DNA from: Candidatus Komeilibacteria bacterium CG_4_10_14_0_8_um_filter_37_78
GTDB lineage: Bacteria; Patescibacteriota; Patescibacteriia; UBA1558
DNA length: 32,269 nt
NCBI GenBank assembly: GCA_002785295.1
Contig: PFMC01000070.1
Span: 1-32,269, forward strand
Direction: 5' to 3'
Shown: piece after piece, positions 1,113 to 31,017 of the stretch
Numbering within the stretch: position 1 is the stretch's first letter
Layout: each line of letters opens with the position of its first letter
Translations under genes and position numbers: made by a program
The notes under the pieces: generated by a model
What the model was told of the DNA's origin: nothing
Seen by the model: the letters and a program-made list of their open reading frames with translations, nothing else
The model's database searches: none

Positions 1113-3443
1113 ATGCTTGAGTCAGTAAAAATATTTTTATCTAAAAGAAGAATTGCGATCTTATCGATTTATTTTTTGATAGCAATTCTTTTTTTGTTGG
1201 CAGTTCCAGTCTTTGCAGCAGATAGCTTCAATTTAGATGAAACGGGGACAGGACTTGGTTTGACACCGGTAGCTGAGGATTTTAGCATCCGGCAAACAGT
1301 GATCAATATTGTGAAGTACTTGATTGGCTTCATTGGTATCGCTGCTATTGTGATGATCCTTTATGGCGGTGTCAGGTGGATGACAGCGGGTGGTAGTGTT
1401 GATAAAGTGGCTAAAGCAAAGAAGACAATTATTAATGCTGCAATTGGGCTGATGATTTGTATTTTATCTTATGCCATTGTTTATTTTGTAGCTTTTCAGT
1501 TGGGTGATGAAGTTTTTGGTGATGGTTCGGGTGGTGATGGAACAGCACCATACTATTCTGGTGGTTTGGGTGGCGGGGCAATTGCCAGTCATTATCCACC
1601 ACGTGGGGCTGTTGGGGTACCGCGTAATATTAATATAGTAGTTACTTTCCGTGATCTAATAAATCCAGGTTCAATCACTGCCGACACAGTGGAGATTAGA
1701 AACAATACACAAGATAGTGTTAATACTTGGACTAATAGTACGACAGATAATAGAACCTTTGTATTTTTTCCAGATAATGACCTTGGTAGTGATGCTGAGG
1801 ATAATATTTATATAGTTACTTTGAAAAATGGTATTGAAAATTCTGAAGGTGACCTGATCTTTGGTAATCTAGGTTATGAATATACTTGGCAGTTTACTGT
1901 CTCTATAGAAATTGATGTTACGCCACCGACTGTTGTTGGGATTTACCCAGCTGATAATGATGGCACAGCATATCCTCGCAATACAATTGTGCAGATGGTT
2001 TTTAGTGAACCAGTGATTGGTTCTACTGGAACTTTTACAATTCAGGAACCGAACTTTACTAATATCCAGGTTTATGCAGTATGGGGCGTTAACGAAGGTC
2101 TTTATGGTACCTTTGTAGCTTCTAATAATTATCGGACAACAGAATTTATTCCAGCCGCTGTTTGTGGTGAGAATGGTTGTGGTGATGTAATGCATTGTTT
2201 TTTAATGGATAGTATGTGTACTGATATTCCTGATGGAGAAGACTGTATTCATGAACATGGAGTGAGGATCAAGACCGATCTCACGCCAGGTTTTCCTTTT
2301 GAGGGCATTGTAGATATGGCTGGCAATCCGCTAGACGGAGATGAGGATGGAACAGGCGGTGAAGGCACAGAAGATGACAAGACTTGGAGCTTTGATCTTA
2401 TTGATGAGCTTGATCTGACACCACCACAAATTATAGAGAAATCACCTGGCGCTTTTGAGAATAGCGTACCATTAAATAAGCCAGTTAAAGTTACTTTTTC
2501 AGAATTAATGATGTCTAGTACTTTAAATGCAGATAATTTAGCGATTGGCATATTTGGGTTAGAAGACGGAATACCTTATTGGGTGACAAGTGATATAGCA
2601 GAAGTGGATATCGATGGTGATTTAATAGAAACAACAATTGCTAATATTAATCATGATGTTTTTAGCTCTTTCACGGTTCATGAAAATAGAGTGCTGAGTA
2701 GTTGTCAGGATATTAACCAGAATTGTTTGTTAATTATTGAAGATCGTAGTGCTCAAGGAAGGGGATTTATTGCGCCACAATTATTAGAGGGTTTAGTAGG
2801 TCATTGGAACTTTGATGAAGGTGCGGGAATGACAGTTGCTGATTTATCTGGGACAGGAAATGATGGTACATTATATCGATTACAAGAAGATGATTGGGTG
2901 ACCAACAGTACTGGTTCGGCAATTGATTATGATGGAGATAAGGGCTATGTCAATGTCTTACATGATGAAAGTTTGATGTTCGACGGACCATTCTCTGTGT
3001 CATTATGGGTTAAATTAACAACAGATCCTTTATCTTATAAAAATGGTCAGCCGAATTGGGTTCCACAGTTTGTTTCTAAGAGTAGTTGGGGTGCTGATTT
3101 TCGTGTCAGATTTTGGACAGGCGGTAAAATAGCATTTGCTACTTATGGACTGAGTAATTCATCATTAACAACAAAGAATCAAGTATTGTTTCAAGACAAG
3201 TATGTTCATGTGGTTGCTGTTTGGGATGGTGTCAGTAAACTTATTTATATTGATGGTGAGGAGAATGCAAGATTTGATGGTGTGACTGGTCAACTCGCTC
3301 ATCTTGATCACAACCTTGGTATAGGCGCGAATCGGTTTGGTTCAGAATCTTTTCTGGGCCTAATAGATAATGTCCGTATTTATAATAGAGCATTAACTCC
3401 ACAAGAGGTAGGATTATTATATGATATTGAGTTTGTAGAATGA
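1113..3443 (+). CDS. Surface protein: N-terminal T4SS-pilin (VirB2/TrbC-like) membrane hairpin, SbsA-type Ig-like domains, C-terminal LamG/ConA-like domain
   Basis: Signal peptide, then VINIVKYLIGFIGIAAIVMILYGGVRWMTAGGS..KAKKTIINAAIGLMICILSYAIVYF. Big_5-like segments (TPPTVVGIYPADN..., TPPQIIEKSPGAFENSVPLNKPVKVTFSE). LamG motif LVGHWNFDEGAGMTVADLSGTGNDGTL...GLIDNVRIYNRALTPQEV. Confidence 0.8.
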   Translation: MLESVKIFLSKRRIAILSIYFLIAILFLLAVPVFAADSFNLDETGTGLGLTPVAEDFSIRQTVINIVKYLIGFIGIAAIVMILYGGVRWMTAGGSVDKVAKAKKTIINAAIGLMICILSYAIVYFVAFQLGDEVFGDGSGGDGTAPYYSGGLGGGAIASHYPPRGAVGVPRNINIVVTFRDLINPGSITADTVEIRNNTQDSVNTWTNSTTDNRTFVFFPDNDLGSDAEDNIYIVTLKNGIENSEGDLIFGNLGYEYTWQFTVSIEIDVTPPTVVGIYPADNDGTAYPRNTIVQMVFSEPVIGSTGTFTIQEPNFTNIQVYAVWGVNEGLYGTFVASNNYRTTEFIPAAVCGENGCGDVMHCFLMDSMCTDIPDGEDCIHEHGVRIKTDLTPGFPFEGIVDMAGNPLDGDEDGTGGEGTEDDKTWSFDLIDELDLTPPQIIEKSPGAFENSVPLNKPVKVTFSELMMSSTLNADNLAIGIFGLEDGIPYWVTSDIAEVDIDGDLIETTIANINHDVFSSFTVHENRVLSSCQDINQNCLLIIEDRSAQGRGFIAPQLLEGLVGHWNFDEGAGMTVADLSGTGNDGTLYRLQEDDWVTNSTGSAIDYDGDKGYVNVLHDESLMFDGPFSVSLWVKLTTDPLSYKNGQPNWVPQFVSKSSWGADFRVRFWTGGKIAFATYGLSNSSLTTKNQVLFQDKYVHVVAVWDGVSKLIYIDGEENARFDGVTGQLAHLDHNLGIGANRFGSESFLGLIDNVRIYNRALTPQEVGLLYDIEFVE

Positions 3444-6400
3444 TCAAGAAAATAAACATTGTAGCTTTAATCATTGTCATCGGTATTATAATAATACCAA
3501 GTCTTGTTTTTGGTGCTGACGGGTTTGGTTTAAATGAGACAGGTGAAGGATTAGGCTTTGCGCCGCGTGGTGCTGATTTTAGTATCCGTGGTCTAGTAAT
3601 TGGGATAGTCAAATATTTGATTGGCTTGATTGGCGTCGCTGCCATTGTGATGATCCTTTATGGCGGCGTTCGTTGGATGACAGCTGGCGGTAGTCCAGAC
3701 AAGGTCAATAAAGCAAAAAAAATAATTATCAATGCGGCTATTGGCTTGGCTATTTGTATTGCTGCTTTTGCTATCGTTAGCTTTATTCAGTATCAAGTGA
3801 CAACATGGATTGCACCAGGAGACGATGATGACGATGATGATGGCGATGGGCTATCTGATCCAATAGTTTTTATTATCTCAGATTGGGATCCAGAAGATGG
3901 CGAGGTTAATTTACCTCGTAATCTGAACATTGGCATTGATTTTAATCAGAATATAGACGTAGTAAGTATTAATCTCAATCAGATCACATTAACTCAGACG
4001 GTGGCCGGAGTTGAAGAACCAATTGATTTAGAAATAGAAGATCTTACTATCACAAACCGAAGAATAGAAATAAGGGCGCCGGGTAATTGTGATGAGCCAA
4101 ATATTGATTATTGTTATGATGCTAATGCTGTTATTAGTGTAGTGGTTGGTGCTAATACTATTTTATCAGCTGATGACGGTGAGAGTATTAGTTGTGCTAG
4201 TAGTGAATATAATTGTAATATCTCAATTTCAGTAGGTGAGTTGTTTGATACAGAGCCGCCAACTGTCCAGGTTACTTATCCTATTAATGGTAGTAGTTTT
4301 AGAAATGGGCAAAATTTTGGTTTAGAAGCTCATACTACTGATAATGTTGATGTCACTAATGTGATATTTTATGCTAATGGTTTCAATATGAATGCGCTGG
4401 TTGTTGAAGTACAAGAGAATTCTTGGGCTGCTTCTTGGACTCTTAGCGGTTATCAGGATGGGAATTATATTTGGCTCATAGCTAGGGCGATTGACAGCAG
4501 TGGTAATGAGTCATTATCCAATTTTGTCAGGATTAGACAAATACCAGCTCACTGTGTTGATGGTTTGCAAAACGAAGATGAAACAGGTCTTGATTGTGGC
4601 GGCAGTTGTGGGGCCTGTGAAGGCGAATCTTGTGATACGAATAATAATGAAAATATTTGTGATCCAAATGGTGATTGTGCGGCAGAGCTTTATTGTGATG
4701 AAGTAAATTGTCTTTGTGAAGTCGCCACAATCATTACGAGCATATCTTCAGATAATGGTGCTGTTGGCAATTTGGTCACAATTAACGGCATAAATTTTGG
4801 TGAAGGGGAAGGAGAAATATATTTTAATAATGGTCAAGTGTTGGTGCCAGCACGAATAGCTGAATGTAATGGTGCATGGACGGACACCCAGATTATTGTC
4901 GTGGTACCAGAATTACTGGAAAGTGGGGACCTGGCCGTTATTAGTGTGTACACAGAAGGAGGTAGTGGAGACGATACTGTTAATAGTCGAGGGTGGCAAG
5001 GCGTCTTTGAGGTTAATGATATTTTACGTCCAGGAATTTGTGCAGTAACGCCACCGGAAGGTAGAGCATTTAGTACTATAGTTGTTAGTGGTGAGCAATT
5101 TGGTAATACTACAGATGTACTTGAAGTTGGTGGTTTTAATGCTGCTATAAATGATTGGACTAATACTGATATTGAAGGCACTATTCCTAATATCAATCCA
5201 GGTACAGTTGGCGTGCGTGTCTTAGTAGATGGTGAGTATAGTAATGTGCTTAATTATACAATCGCAGCAGATGATATTAATCCGATCATTGCTTATTTAA
5301 ATCCGGCAGCTGGTCCAGTAGGACAGTATGTGACAATCTATGGAGATAATTTTGGTTATGATGAGAACGCTATCAGTATTACATTTGGTGGTGTAGCAGC
5401 AGACATCTCCTTTCCAACACAGTGTGGTGCATGGGAGATAGATAATAATGAAATTTTAGTTAAAGTACCAAGCAATTTAGCTTTAGACACTGTTAATGTA
5501 GTAGTGACGAGAAATGGTTATCAGAGTGATCCAGTAAACTTTACAGTAAATAATGATCCTTTATTACCAGGGCTTTGTTTATTAGAGCCAAATCATGGAT
5601 TACCAAGTTCAGAGATAAATATTTATGGTGAAGGATTTAGTAATGCTAATGGTCAGGTATTTTTTTATAATAATCGAGAAGCAGTTTTTGATTCATGGAA
5701 TAATACTACAGTCAATACAGCTGTTGTGCCTTTGGAGGCAGTGACTGGACCAGTGCAATTGGAAAATAGCGCTGATGTGATCAGTGGTAATACTTTAAAT
5801 TTTACAGTTGATATTTGTACTGAAAGTAATACTCCTCCAGATAAAGAATGTTGTATTGATGGTAGTATTGCAGACATTGGACAATGTGAAAATAATGGTG
5901 TACCTGGCGTAACAGAAGACACCTGGATGTTTACAACTGGCGTGCCATTTGAAGTAACTGACTGGACACCAACTTGCGATAGTGCCTGTTTGAACGCGGC
6001 AATTCAAGTAAATTTTAGTCATTCTATTTTACCAAGCAGTATATTAAATAATGATTGTGTACAAATTGAATGTTTGTCTGATAGTTGTCCAGATATTGAT
6101 CCAACTATTTCATTGGCAGAGGGAAACCTGGTTATTAATTATGCTGGTGAACTACAAGCTGATTCTCAGTACCGGGTGATTGTGCACACTGGTGAATATA
6201 ATGATGGCCAATGCGTATTAAGTGCTGCCGATGGTTGGCCTTTTGTGAATGTTAATTATGATACTGATGATGATCAAGTAGCAGATAGTTTTGCTTGGGT
6301 TTTTGCCACATCAGATGAGTTCTGTACTTTGGAGAGGGTAGAGGTAGATCCAGAGTTCGTGGAATTTTTATACCAGGATAATGAGGTGGCAGTCTTAGCC

Positions 6401-9400
6401 AAGGGTTATGGTCAACCAGATAGTTGTCAGGCAGAAGGTCAATTGTTAAATGCTTATGATTATGATTGGGATTGGCGGTCAGCAAATGCTAGTTTAGCAA
6501 CTCTGACTCAGAGAAATGAAAATTTTGATGACAAAATAGATCCGATTGCTGATGTTTATCCTTTTTTCAATGAAGCGACTGGCCGCACCTTTGGGGATAC
6601 TCAGATTATAACTGAGACGACTAATGAAGAAGGATATCAAGTAACTAATAATATGGATGTCAGCGTTGATCTTGATGTGCCGATTATTACTGAAATAGAT
6701 CCAATAACAGTATTTTTGAATCCAGAAGTAGTTACCTATACAACAATAGATGGTGTGAACTTTGGTGATCCGCAAGGTAGTAGCTATGTTATGGTAGGGA
6801 ATCAAATTGCTACTATTGCTGGTTGCCAAGGGGCGTGGAGTAATAATCAAATTGTCATTGAAGTACCTGCTGGTACTAGCACTGGTGATAAAATAAGAGT
6901 GATCAAAGCTAGGGGAGAGGATGAATCAGATGATGTCTTGGGTGTATTAGAGGATGAAGATGATTTGACTGTTATTTTGTGTAGTATTAATCCAAGCTAT
7001 GGACAAGGCAATACAGCAATTACTTTGCATGGTTATAATTTTGGTGATACGCAGATTGATAGTCGCGTTATTTTTAACGATGACGAAGCGCATTATAAAT
7101 ACGCAACAGTTAATTTATGGGCCAATGAACGTATTGTAGGATTTGTTCCTAGTAATATAGCTATTCGCCAAGAACCAATAGTTGTCTTTGTGAATGTTTT
7201 GGACAATGAAAATGGATTAGATGTTAATTCCAATCCAGTTAATTTTGACATCGCTCCACATATTGACTATATTAGCCCAAACAATGGTCCAATTGGACAG
7301 TATGTTACTATTTATGGTCGTAATTTTGGTGATCAGTCAGGGATTGTCAATTTGGGTAATACAGCAATGACTGCTACACCAGATTTCTGTGGCGATACTT
7401 GGACTAATAATGTGATTGTGCGAGTAGTGCCAGCTGGTTTAAGTTTAAGTGATTATGAGTTGGCTGTTACTACTAGTACGGGTTTAACTTCGAATGCTGT
7501 TAACTTTGTTTTGAATAATAATGTGCCAGGACCAAATTTATGCTTATTAGAACCTGATAACGGTGATACGGACGATAATATAGTGTTGAGTGGTGATAAT
7601 TTTGGTGCTGATTCAGATTTGATCCAACCTCTGGTCAGTGGTGCCAATCTTTGCGAGGTTGATGATACTAGTTTTAGTAATACTAATATTAGTGGTCCAA
7701 TTACAGCAGGAGTGAGAAGTGGTGAAGCTGTAGTTAGAAAATCTTATATTATTAGCCATGAATGTAATGGCTTTCATATTGGAAACTGGTGCCCCTTTGG
7801 TTATACTGATGTTTATGGCTATTTATTTAGTAATAGTTTACCGTTTAGTAAATTGAATAGTAGTAGTGGGGGGGAGGGGTGTAGTAATTTACCAAACACT
7901 TGTGTACCTGATTCTAATATTTGTGAAGAAGGGTTGATTTGTAATGATAGTTGTGTTTGCGTATCAGATGATGGTTCAAATGGACAGTGTGGTGATGGTA
8001 ATATAGATGCAGATGAGCAATGTGAAAATAATCCACCAAATAATATAGATGGCGATGGCTGCAGCGCTACTTGTCAGAATGAATTTGATGATTTGGTGTG
8101 CGGTGATTGGATTATTCAAGTGCTTAATAGTGATGGAGTTAATGAGGAGTGTGATGATGGTAATAATATTGATAATGATGGTTGTAGTGCAACTTGCCAA
8201 AACGAAAATGACGATAATATTGTGGTGCCAGTAGGCGCTTCACAGTGTGGTAATGGCACACTAGATGGTGGAGAGCTGTGTGATTTTGATACTGATGGTA
8301 CTGTTTTATGGTCAGACGGAGAACCGCTTTGTACAGATTTGGGATTGTATCAGGGTGGTTCTGTTGGTTGTGATCCTAGTGATTGTAGCTATGATACAGC
8401 AATGTGTATTTATGGTTCACCTAGTAGCGGAGTTTGTGTTAATACTGAGGCGTCTGTGACTTTTGAAGGTTTTATGGATAGTACAACTTTTGTTTATGGG
8501 ACTGATGACAGCGTACAATTAGAGAGCTTTGATGATGAAGCTTGTAGTGCAGGTTGTTTAGTATCAGCAACACTTGATTTTGAAATTTCTGGTGAGCAGC
8601 CATTCAGTTTTAGGAAACTATATATTATGCCAATTGATTTCTTAGATCCAAATACTGATTATCAAGTTACTTTAATTGGTGGTGATGCTGGAATATTATC
8701 AATTGAGGGTAATCAGTTAGACAGTGATTTTATTTGGTCATTTGATACTGGCAGTTCATACTGTACAATTAGTCGAGTCGAGATTGCGCCAGCTAGTTAT
8801 CAATTCAATTCTTATAACGATGAGCAACCATTTATTGCTAATGTTTACGATCAGAATAATAATTCTTTGCATGGTAGTTGGATCGATTATGTTTGGGTTG
8901 AGAATGAGCCAAACAATAGTAATAAGCTTGATATTTATGGCGCAAACTCAAAAGAGTCTAGCATTTCTGTGTTTAATGATTCTATTAGTGGTCACACCTT
9001 CCTCAATGTAAATGTCAGTAGCGAGGTTGATGGCATTAGCTATGGATCAGCGTCAGATCAAGCGAGGATTGATATTGTTGTTTGTGATGAACCGGTTGAA
9101 TATACAAATGCAACTTATAATTTTAGAACTTGGTATTGCCGAGATGGTAGTGGTGATGAATTGTTACCAGAATTGGACCCACATGAATCGAATAATTTGG
9201 GAGATAATATTTTGTATGATGTTTTGTATACTCAAGATGGTAGTGTTGATGGTATCGGGTTGAGAATTTATACCAACTTCTATCATTATGATCCATTATT
9301 ATGGTATCAAGAAAATATAGATATTATGGGTAGTCCGGCAGCTACTAGTATTGATGGCTATGAAGCGATTCAAGAAGGCCGGTCTACTTATATTAACGCT

Positions 9401-10006
9401 GTCAATCAACCAGTAGAAGATATCTATACTAATATTTTTGTTTGGTCATACACTCAAAATGCTTCACCAGGAACTATTAATTTATATAATCAGTTAGTCA
9501 ATAATCTAGAGTTTAATACTAATATACCAAGTCAGGCTACCAAACAAGGGCTGACACGTGATGCCAAGAGGGTAGCAGATTATCGCGAAATTAAGTTAGT
9601 TTTGGGTGATGGCAATTATCCAGCACTTGATTCAGGAAGTTATTTGCAGCACACCTCTGTCTCTACTTGGGATTCATGGCAAAATGCATTAGGAGCGGAA
9701 CTGGGTGTGACTTTGCCGGTTGATCCTCTTAATCAACATGTTAACTGTGATTTGCCAGGCTTTGACCCCATCACTTGTTGGAATCAAACAACAGAAGAGT
9801 ATAGCTGTACTTTAGGCTCTCGCATTTATCGTTATGATTATCTAGCAAATGATTCATATTTGATCAATATGGAATTTGATATTACGAACAGTTTATGGAA
9901 AGGCGACCTTTTTTCAGATATTCCTGATTTCTTTGTTGATCACAATGATTGTGCTGTTGAGCCGATCAATATTCAGGATGATGCCGATAATAGTGATAAT
10001 CAATAA
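3440..10006 (+). CDS. Giant surface protein (2188 aa): N-terminal T4SS-pilin-like hairpin, IPT/TIG repeats, SbsA/Ig-like domains, DUF4215 Cys-rich repeats, C-terminal pseudopilin-like module
   Basis: N-terminus near-identical to the upstream paralogue; ATGA overlap with its stop. TIG motifs (GxxVTIYGxNFG) recur about 8 times. CGDGNIDADEQCENN..DGDGCSATCQNE repeats. C-terminal RDAKRVADYREIKLVL...YPAL...LPVDPLN. Confidence 0.82.
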   Translation: MIKKINIVALIIVIGIIIIPSLVFGADGFGLNETGEGLGFAPRGADFSIRGLVIGIVKYLIGLIGVAAIVMILYGGVRWMTAGGSPDKVNKAKKIIINAAIGLAICIAAFAIVSFIQYQVTTWIAPGDDDDDDDGDGLSDPIVFIISDWDPEDGEVNLPRNLNIGIDFNQNIDVVSINLNQITLTQTVAGVEEPIDLEIEDLTITNRRIEIRAPGNCDEPNIDYCYDANAVISVVVGANTILSADDGESISCASSEYNCNISISVGELFDTEPPTVQVTYPINGSSFRNGQNFGLEAHTTDNVDVTNVIFYANGFNMNALVVEVQENSWAASWTLSGYQDGNYIWLIARAIDSSGNESLSNFVRIRQIPAHCVDGLQNEDETGLDCGGSCGACEGESCDTNNNENICDPNGDCAAELYCDEVNCLCEVATIITSISSDNGAVGNLVTINGINFGEGEGEIYFNNGQVLVPARIAECNGAWTDTQIIVVVPELLESGDLAVISVYTEGGSGDDTVNSRGWQGVFEVNDILRPGICAVTPPEGRAFSTIVVSGEQFGNTTDVLEVGGFNAAINDWTNTDIEGTIPNINPGTVGVRVLVDGEYSNVLNYTIAADDINPIIAYLNPAAGPVGQYVTIYGDNFGYDENAISITFGGVAADISFPTQCGAWEIDNNEILVKVPSNLALDTVNVVVTRNGYQSDPVNFTVNNDPLLPGLCLLEPNHGLPSSEINIYGEGFSNANGQVFFYNNREAVFDSWNNTTVNTAVVPLEAVTGPVQLENSADVISGNTLNFTVDICTESNTPPDKECCIDGSIADIGQCENNGVPGVTEDTWMFTTGVPFEVTDWTPTCDSACLNAAIQVNFSHSILPSSILNNDCVQIECLSDSCPDIDPTISLAEGNLVINYAGELQADSQYRVIVHTGEYNDGQCVLSAADGWPFVNVNYDTDDDQVADSFAWVFATSDEFCTLERVEVDPEFVEFLYQDNEVAVLAKGYGQPDSCQAEGQLLNAYDYDWDWRSANASLATLTQRNENFDDKIDPIADVYPFFNEATGRTFGDTQIITETTNEEGYQVTNNMDVSVDLDVPIITEIDPITVFLNPEVVTYTTIDGVNFGDPQGSSYVMVGNQIATIAGCQGAWSNNQIVIEVPAGTSTGDKIRVIKARGEDESDDVLGVLEDEDDLTVILCSINPSYGQGNTAITLHGYNFGDTQIDSRVIFNDDEAHYKYATVNLWANERIVGFVPSNIAIRQEPIVVFVNVLDNENGLDVNSNPVNFDIAPHIDYISPNNGPIGQYVTIYGRNFGDQSGIVNLGNTAMTATPDFCGDTWTNNVIVRVVPAGLSLSDYELAVTTSTGLTSNAVNFVLNNNVPGPNLCLLEPDNGDTDDNIVLSGDNFGADSDLIQPLVSGANLCEVDDTSFSNTNISGPITAGVRSGEAVVRKSYIISHECNGFHIGNWCPFGYTDVYGYLFSNSLPFSKLNSSSGGEGCSNLPNTCVPDSNICEEGLICNDSCVCVSDDGSNGQCGDGNIDADEQCENNPPNNIDGDGCSATCQNEFDDLVCGDWIIQVLNSDGVNEECDDGNNIDNDGCSATCQNENDDNIVVPVGASQCGNGTLDGGELCDFDTDGTVLWSDGEPLCTDLGLYQGGSVGCDPSDCSYDTAMCIYGSPSSGVCVNTEASVTFEGFMDSTTFVYGTDDSVQLESFDDEACSAGCLVSATLDFEISGEQPFSFRKLYIMPIDFLDPNTDYQVTLIGGDAGILSIEGNQLDSDFIWSFDTGSSYCTISRVEIAPASYQFNSYNDEQPFIANVYDQNNNSLHGSWIDYVWVENEPNNSNKLDIYGANSKESSISVFNDSISGHTFLNVNVSSEVDGISYGSASDQARIDIVVCDEPVEYTNATYNFRTWYCRDGSGDELLPELDPHESNNLGDNILYDVLYTQDGSVDGIGLRIYTNFYHYDPLLWYQENIDIMGSPAATSIDGYEAIQEGRSTYINAVNQPVEDIYTNIFVWSYTQNASPGTINLYNQLVNNLEFNTNIPSQATKQGLTRDAKRVADYREIKLVLGDGNYPALDSGSYLQHTSVSTWDSWQNALGAELGVTLPVDPLNQHVNCDLPGFDPITCWNQTTEEYSCTLGSRIYRYDYLANDSYLINMEFDITNSLWKGDLFSDIPDFFVDHNDCAVEPINIQDDADNSDNQ
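7868..7879 (+). repeat. Homopolymeric G7-A-G4 tract inside the giant surface-protein gene
   Basis: agtagtagtGGGGGGGaGGGGtgtagt, in-frame SSSGGEGCS. Confidence 0.9.
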
Positions 10007-27158: not shown

Positions 27159-28247
27159 ATGAAAAAGTACAAAGAAGAAAACCCAATAGCACTAACTAAG
27201 ACTGTGGTTGATGGTTTGACTACAAAATTTAATCTGTCACTTCTAGATGAGAGGGAGAAATATTTTGAAGCAAAAGTTGGTAAAGAGATAACGGAGTTAA
27301 AAAAATATTTTGAAAATAACACATTTATTGCTTATTGGATGGGCAAAAAAAATTCTGGTAAAGGCACATACTCTAAATTTATGGTGGAAATATTTGGTAA
27401 GGACAGGATAGCTCATGTATCAGTTGGCGATGTGGTAAGGAGTGCCCATACAGATATGGCTGATGAGGATAAGAAAAAAGAGTTATTAGATTATTTATCT
27501 GTTCATTATCGTGGTTATATTTCGCTCGATCAAGCAATAGATGCTTTGTTGGGAAGAAATACTGCTTCATTATTGCCTTCTGAGTTTATTTTGGCATTGA
27601 TCAAGAGAGAAATTGATAAGACGCCAAAGAAGATCATTTTTATAGACGGCTTTCCTAGGGAGTTAGATCAAGTATCATATACTTTGTTTTTACGAGATTT
27701 GATTGACTATCGTAAGGATCCAGATGTTTTCATTGCTATTGATATTCCAGAATTTGTGATAGATGAACGAATGAAAAATAGAGTAGTTTGTCCAGAATGT
27801 CATACACCTAGAAGTTTGAAGCTATTAACGACGCCTGAGGTGGGTTATGATCAAGAAAAGAAAGAGTTTTATTTGATCTGTGACAATCCAAAATGTAATA
27901 ATGTGCGCATGGGGTCAAAAGAGGGTGACAATGCTGGTATTGAATCAATACGTGATAGATTAGAATTGGATGAAAAGCTGATTGAAACGGTTTTTTCTTT
28001 GCATGGTGTACCAAAGATTTTATTGAGAAATTCTATACCAACAAAAGACGTTAATGGTTTGGTGGATGATTATGAAATCACGCCAGAATATAGCTATCAA
28101 CTCAATCCAGATAATAGTGTCAAAACAATAGAGAGTGAGTGGATCATTAAGGATGATGAGGGTCAGGATGCTTATAGTCTATTAGCACCAGCAGTGGTTG
28201 TCTCTCTAATTAAGCAACTCCACACATTATTCCTCAAAGATAGTTAG
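27159..28247 (+). CDS. Adenylate-kinase-like nucleoside monophosphate kinase with Zn-finger LID, extended
   Basis: GKKNSGKGTYSKFM P-loop; FIDGFPREL; CPECHTPRSL...CDNPKC zinc-finger-type segment. Confidence 0.82.
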   Translation: MKKYKEENPIALTKTVVDGLTTKFNLSLLDEREKYFEAKVGKEITELKKYFENNTFIAYWMGKKNSGKGTYSKFMVEIFGKDRIAHVSVGDVVRSAHTDMADEDKKKELLDYLSVHYRGYISLDQAIDALLGRNTASLLPSEFILALIKREIDKTPKKIIFIDGFPRELDQVSYTLFLRDLIDYRKDPDVFIAIDIPEFVIDERMKNRVVCPECHTPRSLKLLTTPEVGYDQEKKEFYLICDNPKCNNVRMGSKEGDNAGIESIRDRLELDEKLIETVFSLHGVPKILLRNSIPTKDVNGLVDDYEITPEYSYQLNPDNSVKTIESEWIIKDDEGQDAYSLLAPAVVVSLIKQLHTLFLKDS

Positions 28248-28766: not shown

Positions 28767-28853
28767 ATGAAACAAAAAGTCACCACTGTATTTATTAGTT
28801 ACAACAAAATCACTGGCTATCTGTCTGGTTGGTACCCTCAGGGTGGGTCTTGA
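28767..28853 (+). CDS. Small ORF, 28 aa (MKQKVTTVFISYNKITGYLSGWYPQGGS)
   Basis: SD aaaAAGGAG upstream of ATG; below the ORF-track cutoff. Confidence 0.4.
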   Translation: MKQKVTTVFISYNKITGYLSGWYPQGGS

Positions 28854-28879
28854 CAAAATGATGAAAATAACCGTACAAT
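28850..28879 (+). promoter_or_regulatory. Putative promoter TTGACA-18-TACAAT of the CxC small-ORF cluster
   Basis: TTGACA 28850-28855, TACAAT 28874-28879. Confidence 0.6.
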
Positions 28880-28938
28880 ATGCTATCCTATAAATGAAAG
28901 AACTTTAACATAAAGTCATTTTACCAAGGAGGTATAAA

Positions 28939-29073
28939 ATGAAGAACACATTCATGTTAATAGTCATTCTTTTGACTAGTATGGTAATGGGTCAGTGGCC
29001 AGTTTTATCACGGCGAAGTTTCGGTACAACACGTGAAACAGTATGTCGTGTATGCAGGTTTGAATGCACTTAA
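28939..29073 (+). CDS. Small ORF, 44 aa, signal-peptide-like N-terminus, Cys-containing C-terminus
   Basis: SD AAGGAGG then ATG; MKNTFMLIVILLTSMVMGQWPVLSRRSFGTTRETVCRVCRFECT*. Confidence 0.45.
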   Translation: MKNTFMLIVILLTSMVMGQWPVLSRRSFGTTRETVCRVCRFECT

Positions 29074-29260
29074 TCAAGCTATTGCCATGGCGCGTAGCTT
29101 GCAAGTACAAGCAGACGTGCCAGTCACTGTAGTCTCTTGCGACTGTGAGCAAGATAAAAAAAAGAAAATGTTAGCTAATACAAATATCAAGCTGATTCCA
29201 TGTGAATGTGGTGGTCACAAAACCTTGGCCAAAATGGTAGCAGATGTTTTAGCTAATTAA
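29033..29260 (+). CDS. 75-aa protein with two CxC motifs
   Basis: GTG start; ...TVVSCDCEQDKKKKMLANTNIKLIPCECGGHKTL...; overlaps the upstream small ORF in another frame. Confidence 0.65.
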   Translation: MKQYVVYAGLNALNQAIAMARSLQVQADVPVTVVSCDCEQDKKKKMLANTNIKLIPCECGGHKTLAKMVADVLAN

Positions 29261-29277
29261 ATAAGAAGGAGTTAGCA

Positions 29278-29481
29278 ATGTCTCAACAAGTAATGCCACC
29301 TGTCGAGGGTGGGGGATTTGATAGAGCCAGTGAGATCTTTGGTCAGATTGTTGTCTTTGATGAACATGCTCATCAGCAATATGATGCCAGACACTGCCAA
29401 GAAAGAGTGACAGATGCAGAGGTGCATTGCAATTGCTCTTTCAGTGAGTCTGAAGAGGCTCACTCAGCTTGTTTTCTATAG
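29278..29481 (+). CDS. 67-aa Cys/His-rich protein with a CxC motif
   Basis: SD AAGGAG; ...FDEHAHQQYDARHCQERVTDAEVHCNCSFSESEEAHSACFL. Confidence 0.65.
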   Translation: MSQQVMPPVEGGGFDRASEIFGQIVVFDEHAHQQYDARHCQERVTDAEVHCNCSFSESEEAHSACFL

Positions 29482-29487
29482 GAGGTT

Positions 29488-29628
29488 ATGATGACAAAAG
29501 AAAAAGATAAACCAATCGTCAAATGTGCTTGTCAAAAGCTAAAAGAAGCAATTAGAAAGTTTTATTTTGCAAGAGATAAAACTAATCCACAGGACAGAAC
29601 TAAGTGTCAATGTGGACTGAATCCCTAA
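29488..29628 (+). CDS. 46-aa (or 45-aa from ATG 29491) protein with two CxC motifs
   Basis: SD AGGAGG overlapping the previous stop; MMTKEKDKPIVKCACQKLKEAIRKFYFARDKTNPQDRTKCQCGLNP*. Confidence 0.65.
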   Translation: MMTKEKDKPIVKCACQKLKEAIRKFYFARDKTNPQDRTKCQCGLNP

Positions 29629-29653
29629 TCTTAGCAAGTACGAATGATGAAAT

Positions 29654-29686
29654 AGGAAGTTGACAACAATTGTCAGCTTCCTTTTG
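29654..29686 (+). terminator. Strong rho-independent terminator of the CxC cluster
   Basis: AGGAAGTTGACAA-caa-TTGTCAGCTTCCT-TTT, 13 bp with one wobble. Confidence 0.8.
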
Positions 29687-29687
29687 A

Positions 29688-29716
29688 TTGACATTAAAAA
29701 GGTGTCTTTATATAAT
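29688..29716 (+). promoter_or_regulatory. Perfect consensus promoter TTGACA-17-TATAAT
   Basis: TTGACA 29688-29693, TATAAT 29711-29716. Confidence 0.85.
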
Positions 29717-29722
29717 GAAAGT

Positions 29723-29964
29723 GTTCTTATCATTGTTGTAGATTGAAGCTCTATAACCTTTGTATTAGGGAGTTTGCGTGAATTAGGATTGTGATTCTAG
29801 TTCTAAAGCACCCAGCGGCGATAGTTTTACAGGATTGAACGAGATACGGTTTTACTATATCTTATTTGATCTGTAATAACTGCCCGGTTGTTATTGTGGA
29901 ACTTCCAATCGAGAACTGCAATGGTAAGAACTTAAAATCGCCGAGCCAGGCTCGACGTTTTTAT
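29723..29964 (+). ncRNA. Candidate abundant structured ncRNA, class unassigned (6S-like overall form possible)
   Basis: No coding ORF. Predicted TSS about 29723. Closing stem GTTCTTATCATTG(29723-29735)/CAATGGTAAGAAC(29919-29931), 13 bp; further stems inside; terminator CGAGC-cag-GCTCG + T-rich tail at 29942-29964. Confidence 0.7.
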
Positions 29965-29991
29965 TTTATTTTGTTAAGCTTAATTTATTAG

Positions 29992-30069: not shown

Positions 30070-30085
30070 GTTTATTAGAAGTCAA

Positions 30086-30415
30086 ATGAAAGTTATCAAA
30101 TTTACAAATGATTTAATGTATAAAATAATCAAGGGCGAAAAAGATTTCACTTGGTGATTTTTTGATGATAAGGATCTTATTATTGATGATAATTTATTGT
30201 TAGTGAATAGTGACAATGGTCAAGAGTTTGCTAAAGCAGTTATTACTGGTATGGTGATTAAAGCTGTGCACGATTTAACTGAACTAGATATGAAAGATAA
30301 ATTTGAGAGTATCGAAGAGGTTTGTGAAATATTTTCAAATTATTATGGAAAGACTATTACACTTGATGACAGAGTTAAGATCATTAGATTTAGGGTTGAG
30401 GAAATACTTGTTTAG
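30086..30415 (+). pseudogene. ASCH-like domain protein interrupted by an in-frame TGA (30155-30157)
   Basis: MKVIKFTNDLMYKIIKGEKDFTW*FFDDKDLIIDDNLLLVNSDNGQEFAKAVITGMVIKAVHDL...; the tracked ORF at 30197 is the in-frame downstream portion. Confidence 0.7.
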
Positions 30416-30852: not shown

Positions 30853-31017
30853 ATGAGAGTACTGGCAATGGGCAGATTTATTTTATTTATGATCGGCATT
30901 GTCTTGCTGGCCATATTTATTTTGATCTGTTGCGTTTGGGGAGTGTTCTTATCAATTCTCATCGGTCTTATAATGTTCTGGGCTTATCGCTTGGGACACA
31001 AACATGTTGCACAATAA
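30853..31017 (+). CDS. Small membrane protein (54 aa)
   Basis: SD AAGGAG upstream of ATG 30853; two hydrophobic segments; the tracked start at 30784 is less likely. Confidence 0.65.
   Translation: MRVLAMGRFILFMIGIVLLAIFILICCVWGVFLSILIGLIMFWAYRLGHKHVAQ

What the first reader, a model, noticed from the sequence alone, without database searches (positions are those of the whole stretch)
28850..29686. Mini-operon of CxC-motif micro-proteins
Between a TTGACA-18-TACAAT promoter and a 13-bp terminator lie consecutive tiny ORFs of 44, 75, 67 and 46 aa. The last three carry CxC motifs in similar contexts (VVSCDCEQ, LIPCECGGH, EVHCNCSF, IVKCACQK, RTKCQCGL), five in all, plus extra Cys/His. Several have very strong SD sites, unlike most large genes here. 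This suggests small, highly translated metal-binding or redox peptides. I do not recognise the family.
Basis: partly seen in the sequence, partly recalled or inferred. Interest (0 to 1): 0.8.

Follow-up and report, generated by a model that had tools for sequence, protein, structure and literature searches.

The report
Broken member of new CPR protein family
The supposed cluster of tiny cysteine-rich proteins is mostly one interrupted gene from an undescribed protein family with three invariant cysteines, found patchily across the ultra-small Patescibacteria, followed by two small open reading frames that have no known relatives.

Summary
The four ORFs, five CxC motifs, promoter-like site and hairpin are all present, but the 'mini-operon of micro-proteins' reading holds only in part. 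ORF2 (75 aa) is not a natural unit. It is the C-terminal ~90 residues (open from 28988) of a ~150-aa protein family found in 17 of 381 class genomes and 9 of 380 phylum genomes (Patescibacteria). Intact relatives begin with a hhhSYN...GW segment, which the window carries 0.2 kb upstream at 28767-28850, outside the given coordinates. In the window the gene is interrupted: TGA at 28851, three more stops in frame, then a frame change. ORF1 (44 aa) is a reading in a third frame across that broken middle.

The family matches no Pfam, NCBIfam, PHROG, PADLOC or PDB entry. Its AlphaFold model (pLDDT 86) is an alpha/beta sheet domain. The invariant CxC and CGG cysteines lie at the C-terminal ends of two strands, suggesting a thiol or metal site (inferred).

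ORF3 and ORF4 have strong Shine-Dalgarno sites but no homologues in about 700 genomes, so they may be young small genes. The segment sits where relatives carry ndk, beside an unannotated structured RNA and tRNA-Pro. The family is new; the window copy is probably degenerate.

The parts
28767..28853 (+). N-terminal piece of the interrupted family gene: MKQKVTTVFISYNKITGYLSGWYPQGGS, SD AAGGAG, ends at TGA 28851-28853
   Evidence: matches the family profile N-terminus at 17.6 bits; 12 of 20 residues identical to the G343 homologue (L008); 4 of 4 conserved positions kept; SD
28851..28990 (+). broken middle: stops in frame 0 at 28851 (TGA), 28911 (TAA), 28935 (TAA), 28977 (TAG), frame 2 blocked by TAA at 28985, then shift to frame 2; about 137 nt where closest relatives have about 90 nt
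   Evidence: three-frame translations and frameshift-aware alignment to G343 and G393 proteins
28850..28879 (+). sigma70-like promoter match TTGACA-18-TACAAT inside the broken gene
   Evidence: pattern scan only
28939..29073 (+). ORF1, 44 aa: SD AAGGAGGT; about 17 codons of own sequence (signal-peptide-like), then 27 codons read out of frame over the conserved C-terminal piece
   Evidence: codon bias negative in this frame
28988..29260 (+). C-terminal piece of the family gene (contains ORF2): YxG, CxC, K, CECGG, 90 codons open
   Evidence: G343 45% identity E 1.5e-19; family profile E 5.7e-30; 9 of 9 conserved columns kept; positive coding score only in this frame
29278..29481 (+). ORF3, 67 aa, SD AAGGAG, one CxC, no homologue
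29488..29628 (+). ORF4, 46 aa (45 from ATG 29491), SD AGGAGGT, KCAC...KCQCG, no homologue; borderline likeness to the CxC...CxCG core of the family
   Evidence: 6.6 bits; 5 of 2000 shuffles and 20 of 2000 CxC-preserving shuffles reach it
29654..29682 (+). 13-bp hairpin with short T run, likely terminator

Best explanation
Bases 28767-29260 are one interrupted gene of an undescribed Patescibacteria family of about 150-aa alpha/beta proteins. The N-terminal strand (28767-28850) and the C-terminal half (28988-29257) are preserved. The middle carries stops and a frame change, and ORF1 is an out-of-frame reading over it. ORF3 and ORF4 are two further, lineage-specific SD-led small ORFs downstream. 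The whole stretch is accessory DNA in a variable slot between a response-regulator gene and a structured-RNA/tRNA-Pro locus. In intact members the invariant CxC and CGG cysteines sit at the ends of two strands of the sheet, most likely forming one thiol or metal site (inferred). The window copy is most likely inactive or remodelled.
For: Shown: homologues are continuous ORFs of about 150 aa or more that begin with the same SYN..GW segment. G343 aligns from upstream of ORF2's GTG. Family profile hits on both pieces: 17.6 and 76.3 bits. All conserved positions are kept in both pieces. Four in-frame stops plus a frame change lie between them. Three Cys, YxG, CGG and a nearly invariant K are conserved across 23 members. 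The model has pLDDT 86.4, with CxC (102-104) after strand 97-101 and CGG (128-130) after strand 122-125. Synteny: same-family genomes have MBL-fold/REC/ndk/ncRNA/tRNA-Pro or ndk/ncRNA/tRNA-Pro, without this segment. 14 of 20 members with a mapped N-terminus are SD-led, against 29 of 144 neighbouring genes. Inferred: the site's chemistry, and that the window copy is non-functional.
Against: The C-terminal piece shows no decay (90 open codons, all motif residues kept, good codon bias). All four stops lie in the middle, which uniform decay would give rarely: (45/163)^4, about 0.006. The longest SD match in the window (AAGGAGGT) and a good promoter match lie inside the break, as if a shortened protein were newly started there. 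No close relative of the same species was available to date the break or exclude an assembly error.
Confidence: 0.75

Rival explanations
1. Remodelled gene: a new promoter and SD drive a shortened protein (ORF1 start plus C-terminal domain by +1 frameshift, or ORF2 from its GTG), followed by ORF3 and ORF4 as a working operon of CxC proteins.
For: Longest SD match in the window at 28939, promoter match at 28850, C-terminal domain intact; three SD-led starts before one hairpin; ORF4 weakly echoes the CxC...CxCG core.
Against: ORF1 and ORF2 are in different frames, with no recognisable frameshift signal. ORF2's GTG has no SD and starts inside the conserved sequence. The truncated domain would lack three of six predicted strands. 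ORF3 and ORF4 have no homologues.
Confidence: 0.2
2. Assembly or sequencing error: the gene is intact in the organism and the metagenome contig is wrong between 28850 and 28990.
For: A draft genome of 85 contigs; no read data available; the flanking pieces are perfect.
Against: Four stops, a net length gain of about 47 nt and loss of the family's conserved LFVCANDAG block cannot come from one or two base errors. A second interrupted gene (ASCH, TGA at 30157) lies 1 kb away.
Confidence: 0.08
3. One reading: four independent, highly translated metal-binding micro-proteins.
For: Five CxC motifs, strong SD sites.
Against: ORF2 and the upstream 28-aa ORF are pieces of one larger gene; ORF1 is out of frame with the conserved sequence.
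Confidence: 0.07

Closest known systems
P-loop GTPase G domain (Ras, EngB, FeoB, EF-Tu), best fold-search hits
   Same: alpha/beta order; CxC and CGG fall roughly where the NKxD and SAK loops lie (reading by eye, not tested further)
   Different: best E 2.8e-3, TM at most 0.55; no P-loop GxxxxGK[ST] in any aligned member; low sequence identity (8-14% among the G-domain hits)
TIR/CAP12 and nucleoside deoxyribosyltransferase-like flavodoxin folds
   Same: weak hits by profile (CAP12-PCTIR E 0.05) and by fold (NDT)
   Different: below every cut-off; no catalytic pattern tested; the Cys triad is not a feature of these families (own knowledge)
HvfA-type thioamide RiPP metallophores (NF050188)
   Same: short, Cys-containing; E 0.0075 for the window piece only
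   Different: 16.9 bits against cut-off 95; not seen for any other family member
Bacterial metallothioneins and other CxC-rich small proteins (own knowledge)
   Same: repeated CxC
   Different: only three or four conserved Cys per ~150 aa in a folded alpha/beta domain; no Pfam match

Membership tests
Undescribed CxC/CGG family defined here (A1, A3, 23 members) | C-terminal core YxG - CxC - K - CGG | tested here: met
   9 of 9 conserved columns kept in the window piece; profile E 5.7e-30
Undescribed CxC/CGG family defined here (A1, A3, 23 members) | N-terminal SYN..GW strand segment continuous with the core in one ORF | tested here: not met
   segment present at 28767-28850 but separated by stops and a frame change; the window holds an interrupted member
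P-loop GTPase | Walker A GxxxxGK[ST] after the first strand | tested here: not met
   absent from all rows of alignment A3
HvfA RiPP metallophore (NF050188) | score above curated cut-off of 95 bits | tested here: not met
   16.7-16.9 bits
Any Pfam family | score above gathering cut-off | tested here: not met
Known anti-phage defence protein (PADLOC) | confident profile match in several members | tested here: not met
   one member, E 0.016, to ZorB only
Metal-binding or redox protein | bound metal or redox-active disulfide | not testable with these tools
   three invariant Cys at neighbouring helix starts in the predicted fold is suggestive only; no coordinates were available to measure distances

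The most novel reading that the evidence does not exclude
Patescibacteria carry a patchy, SD-led accessory protein family with a Cys-triad site on an alpha/beta fold. In this lineage it is being broken down into a set of separately initiated CxC mini-proteins (ORF2, ORF3, ORF4) that still work as thiol or metal peptides.
Probability: 0.12. Interest if true: 0.7.

Novelty: new variant of a known kind. Interest (0 to 1): 0.38.

Why it matters
It turns an orphan cluster of tiny ORFs into a definable, widespread but rare and unannotated Patescibacteria protein family with an invariant cysteine site, testable with intact relatives (for example L062 and L065). It also warns that 'micro-protein operons' in metagenome assemblies can be fragments of one broken gene. 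Strong SD sites separate such small accessory genes from the otherwise SD-poor larger genes of this window.

Tried and rejected
Whole-library profile searches (Pfam, NCBIfam, PHROGs, PADLOC, PDB sequences): no real match. Fold searches in PDB and BFVD: nothing with E below 0.001. Viral, phage and plasmid searches: none, so no sign of a phage origin. Alternative genetic code (TGA read as an amino acid): rejected, since TGA ends 4 of 23 window genes and the middle also holds TAA and TAG. ORF4 look-alike in G415 (L103): rejected, it lies antisense to a better SD-led ORF and its E-value is expected by chance over 333 genomes. ORF3 as a family fragment: rejected, 192 of 2000 shuffles score as well. 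Conserved operon partner: none found in 22 neighbourhoods. Searching with ORF2 alone in the order and in genome contigs gave nothing; the family appeared only when ORF2 was extended upstream and the whole class was searched. Literature searches found no description of the family. Three weak profile hits (G342, G272, G092) lie over other genes and were left out of the 23 members.

Full report
Observation. Strong SD sites are real and unusual here: 28767, 28939, 29278 and 29491 have 6-8 nt SD matches, while none of 24 larger genes has 5 or more, and only 3.7% of all + strand ATGs in the window have 6 or more. ORF2, however, has no SD and overlaps ORF1 by 41 nt in another frame.

ORF2 is part of a larger protein. 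ORF2 alone found nothing useful in the order, in genome contigs or in viral contigs. Extended upstream within its stop-to-stop frame and searched in 381 class genomes, it hit G343 at 45% identity (E 1.5e-19), beginning before ORF2's GTG, and a dozen further genomes. These relatives are continuous ORFs, mostly of 147-209 aa, that share an N-terminal hydrophobic-SYN...GW segment and a C-terminal core YxG, CxC, K, CGG. A profile of 13 rows found 17 of 381 class genomes and 9 of 380 phylum genomes, the window's own included. Named hits come from Uhrbacteria, Peregrinibacteria, Moraniibacteriota, Lloydbacteria and Falkowbacteria MAGs. The family is therefore widespread in Patescibacteria but rare and patchy, and the window's genome has one copy.

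The window copy is interrupted. The N-terminal segment is present 0.2 kb upstream, as a 28-aa SD-led ORF at 28767 (17.6 bits against the family profile; the C-terminal piece scores 76.3 bits). Between the two pieces lie stops at 28851, 28911, 28935 and 28977 in the first frame, and a change to the frame of ORF2, which opens at 28988. The closest relatives (G343, G393) have about 90 nt there, with a conserved LFVCANDAG block; the window has about 137 nt without it. ORF1 starts inside this stretch with the longest SD match of any + strand ATG in the window, but its last 27 codons are out of frame over the conserved region, and its codon bias is negative. Both preserved pieces keep every conserved position. 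That argues for a recent break, or for continued use of the C-terminal part; it cannot be decided without strains or reads.

ORF3 and ORF4. Their SD sites and positions directly after the preceding stop codons suggest real starts, and their own frames score best, though weakly, for codon bias. No homologue appeared in 381 class genomes, 333 phylum genomes or phages; for ORF3 also none in viral contigs. ORF4 shows a faint likeness to the family's CxC...CxCG core (5 of 2000 shuffles reach it; 20 of 2000 if CxC is preserved), which is not enough to call homology.

Fold and likely working. An alignment of nine relatives plus the window gives a confident model (pLDDT 86.4, pTM 0.84): three strands, a long helix, then three strand-helix units. 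CxC follows the fifth strand and CGG follows the sixth, both just before a helix. That is the classic place for an active or binding site in such sheets (established knowledge of Rossmann-like folds). Because the three cysteines are invariant in 23 of 23 members, I infer one thiolate site, for metal or for thiol chemistry. No solved or viral structure matches with E below 0.001; the best are G domains at TM 0.55 or less, and no P-loop is present. Sequence libraries give nothing above cut-off.

Genome context. In same-family genomes G002 and G001 the same locus reads (MBL-fold, REC) ndk, structured RNA, tRNA-Pro(GGG). In the window an adenylate-kinase-like gene and the CxC stretch lie between REC and the RNA instead. 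The stretch is thus accessory DNA in a variable slot. Relatives of the gene also sit in unrelated places without a constant partner, though one is fused to a receiver-like domain (G147) and two have small receiver-like genes nearby (domain named by eye). Most are SD-led: 14 of 20, against 29 of 144 neighbouring genes.

Verdict. The family is new to the libraries tested and worth a biochemical look through an intact member. The window's 'mini-operon' is best explained as one interrupted member plus two orphan small ORFs.

Noticed in passing
window 29688-29965 (+): Candidate structured non-coding RNA: perfect TTGACA-17-TATAAT promoter, rod-like fold (z = -5.6), hairpin end, no credible Rfam match; conserved with 22 pairs showing compensatory change in G001 and G002, and a 36-nt block at 89% in G032; upstream of tRNA-Pro(GGG) in all three same-family genomes. 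6S-RNA-like in outline only.
   Followed up: partly
window 30085-30415 (+): ASCH-domain gene (Pfam E 3.3e-6 when read through) interrupted by an in-frame TGA at 30157; a second broken gene 1 kb from the finding.
   Followed up: partly
L046 (G343, reverse strand of the locus; oriented 6538-7835): Directly after the family gene: a radical SAM/SPASM protein (Pfam 1.5e-19) and an overlapping SD-led 66-aa ORF ending VCQCCFDSGSPQGDCCPLY, RiPP-like; not seen beside other members.
   Followed up: partly
window 27159-28247 (+): Adenylate-kinase-like 362-aa protein with an insert containing CPEC/CDNPKC cysteines; stands where same-family genomes have ndk; only one good relative in the order (G022, 55%).
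   Followed up: partly
window 1113-3443 and 3440-10006 (+): Two adjacent large surface-type proteins (776 and 2188 aa) share a short hydrophobic two-helix N-terminal module (pilin/VirB2-like by eye) fused to long repeat ectodomains.
   Followed up: no
L053 (G147) 5549-6421: Family member fused to an N-terminal receiver-like domain.
   Followed up: no
window 30853-31017 (+): Another small SD-led ORF (TAAGGAG; 54 aa, membrane protein), consistent with SD sites marking small accessory genes here.
   Followed up: no
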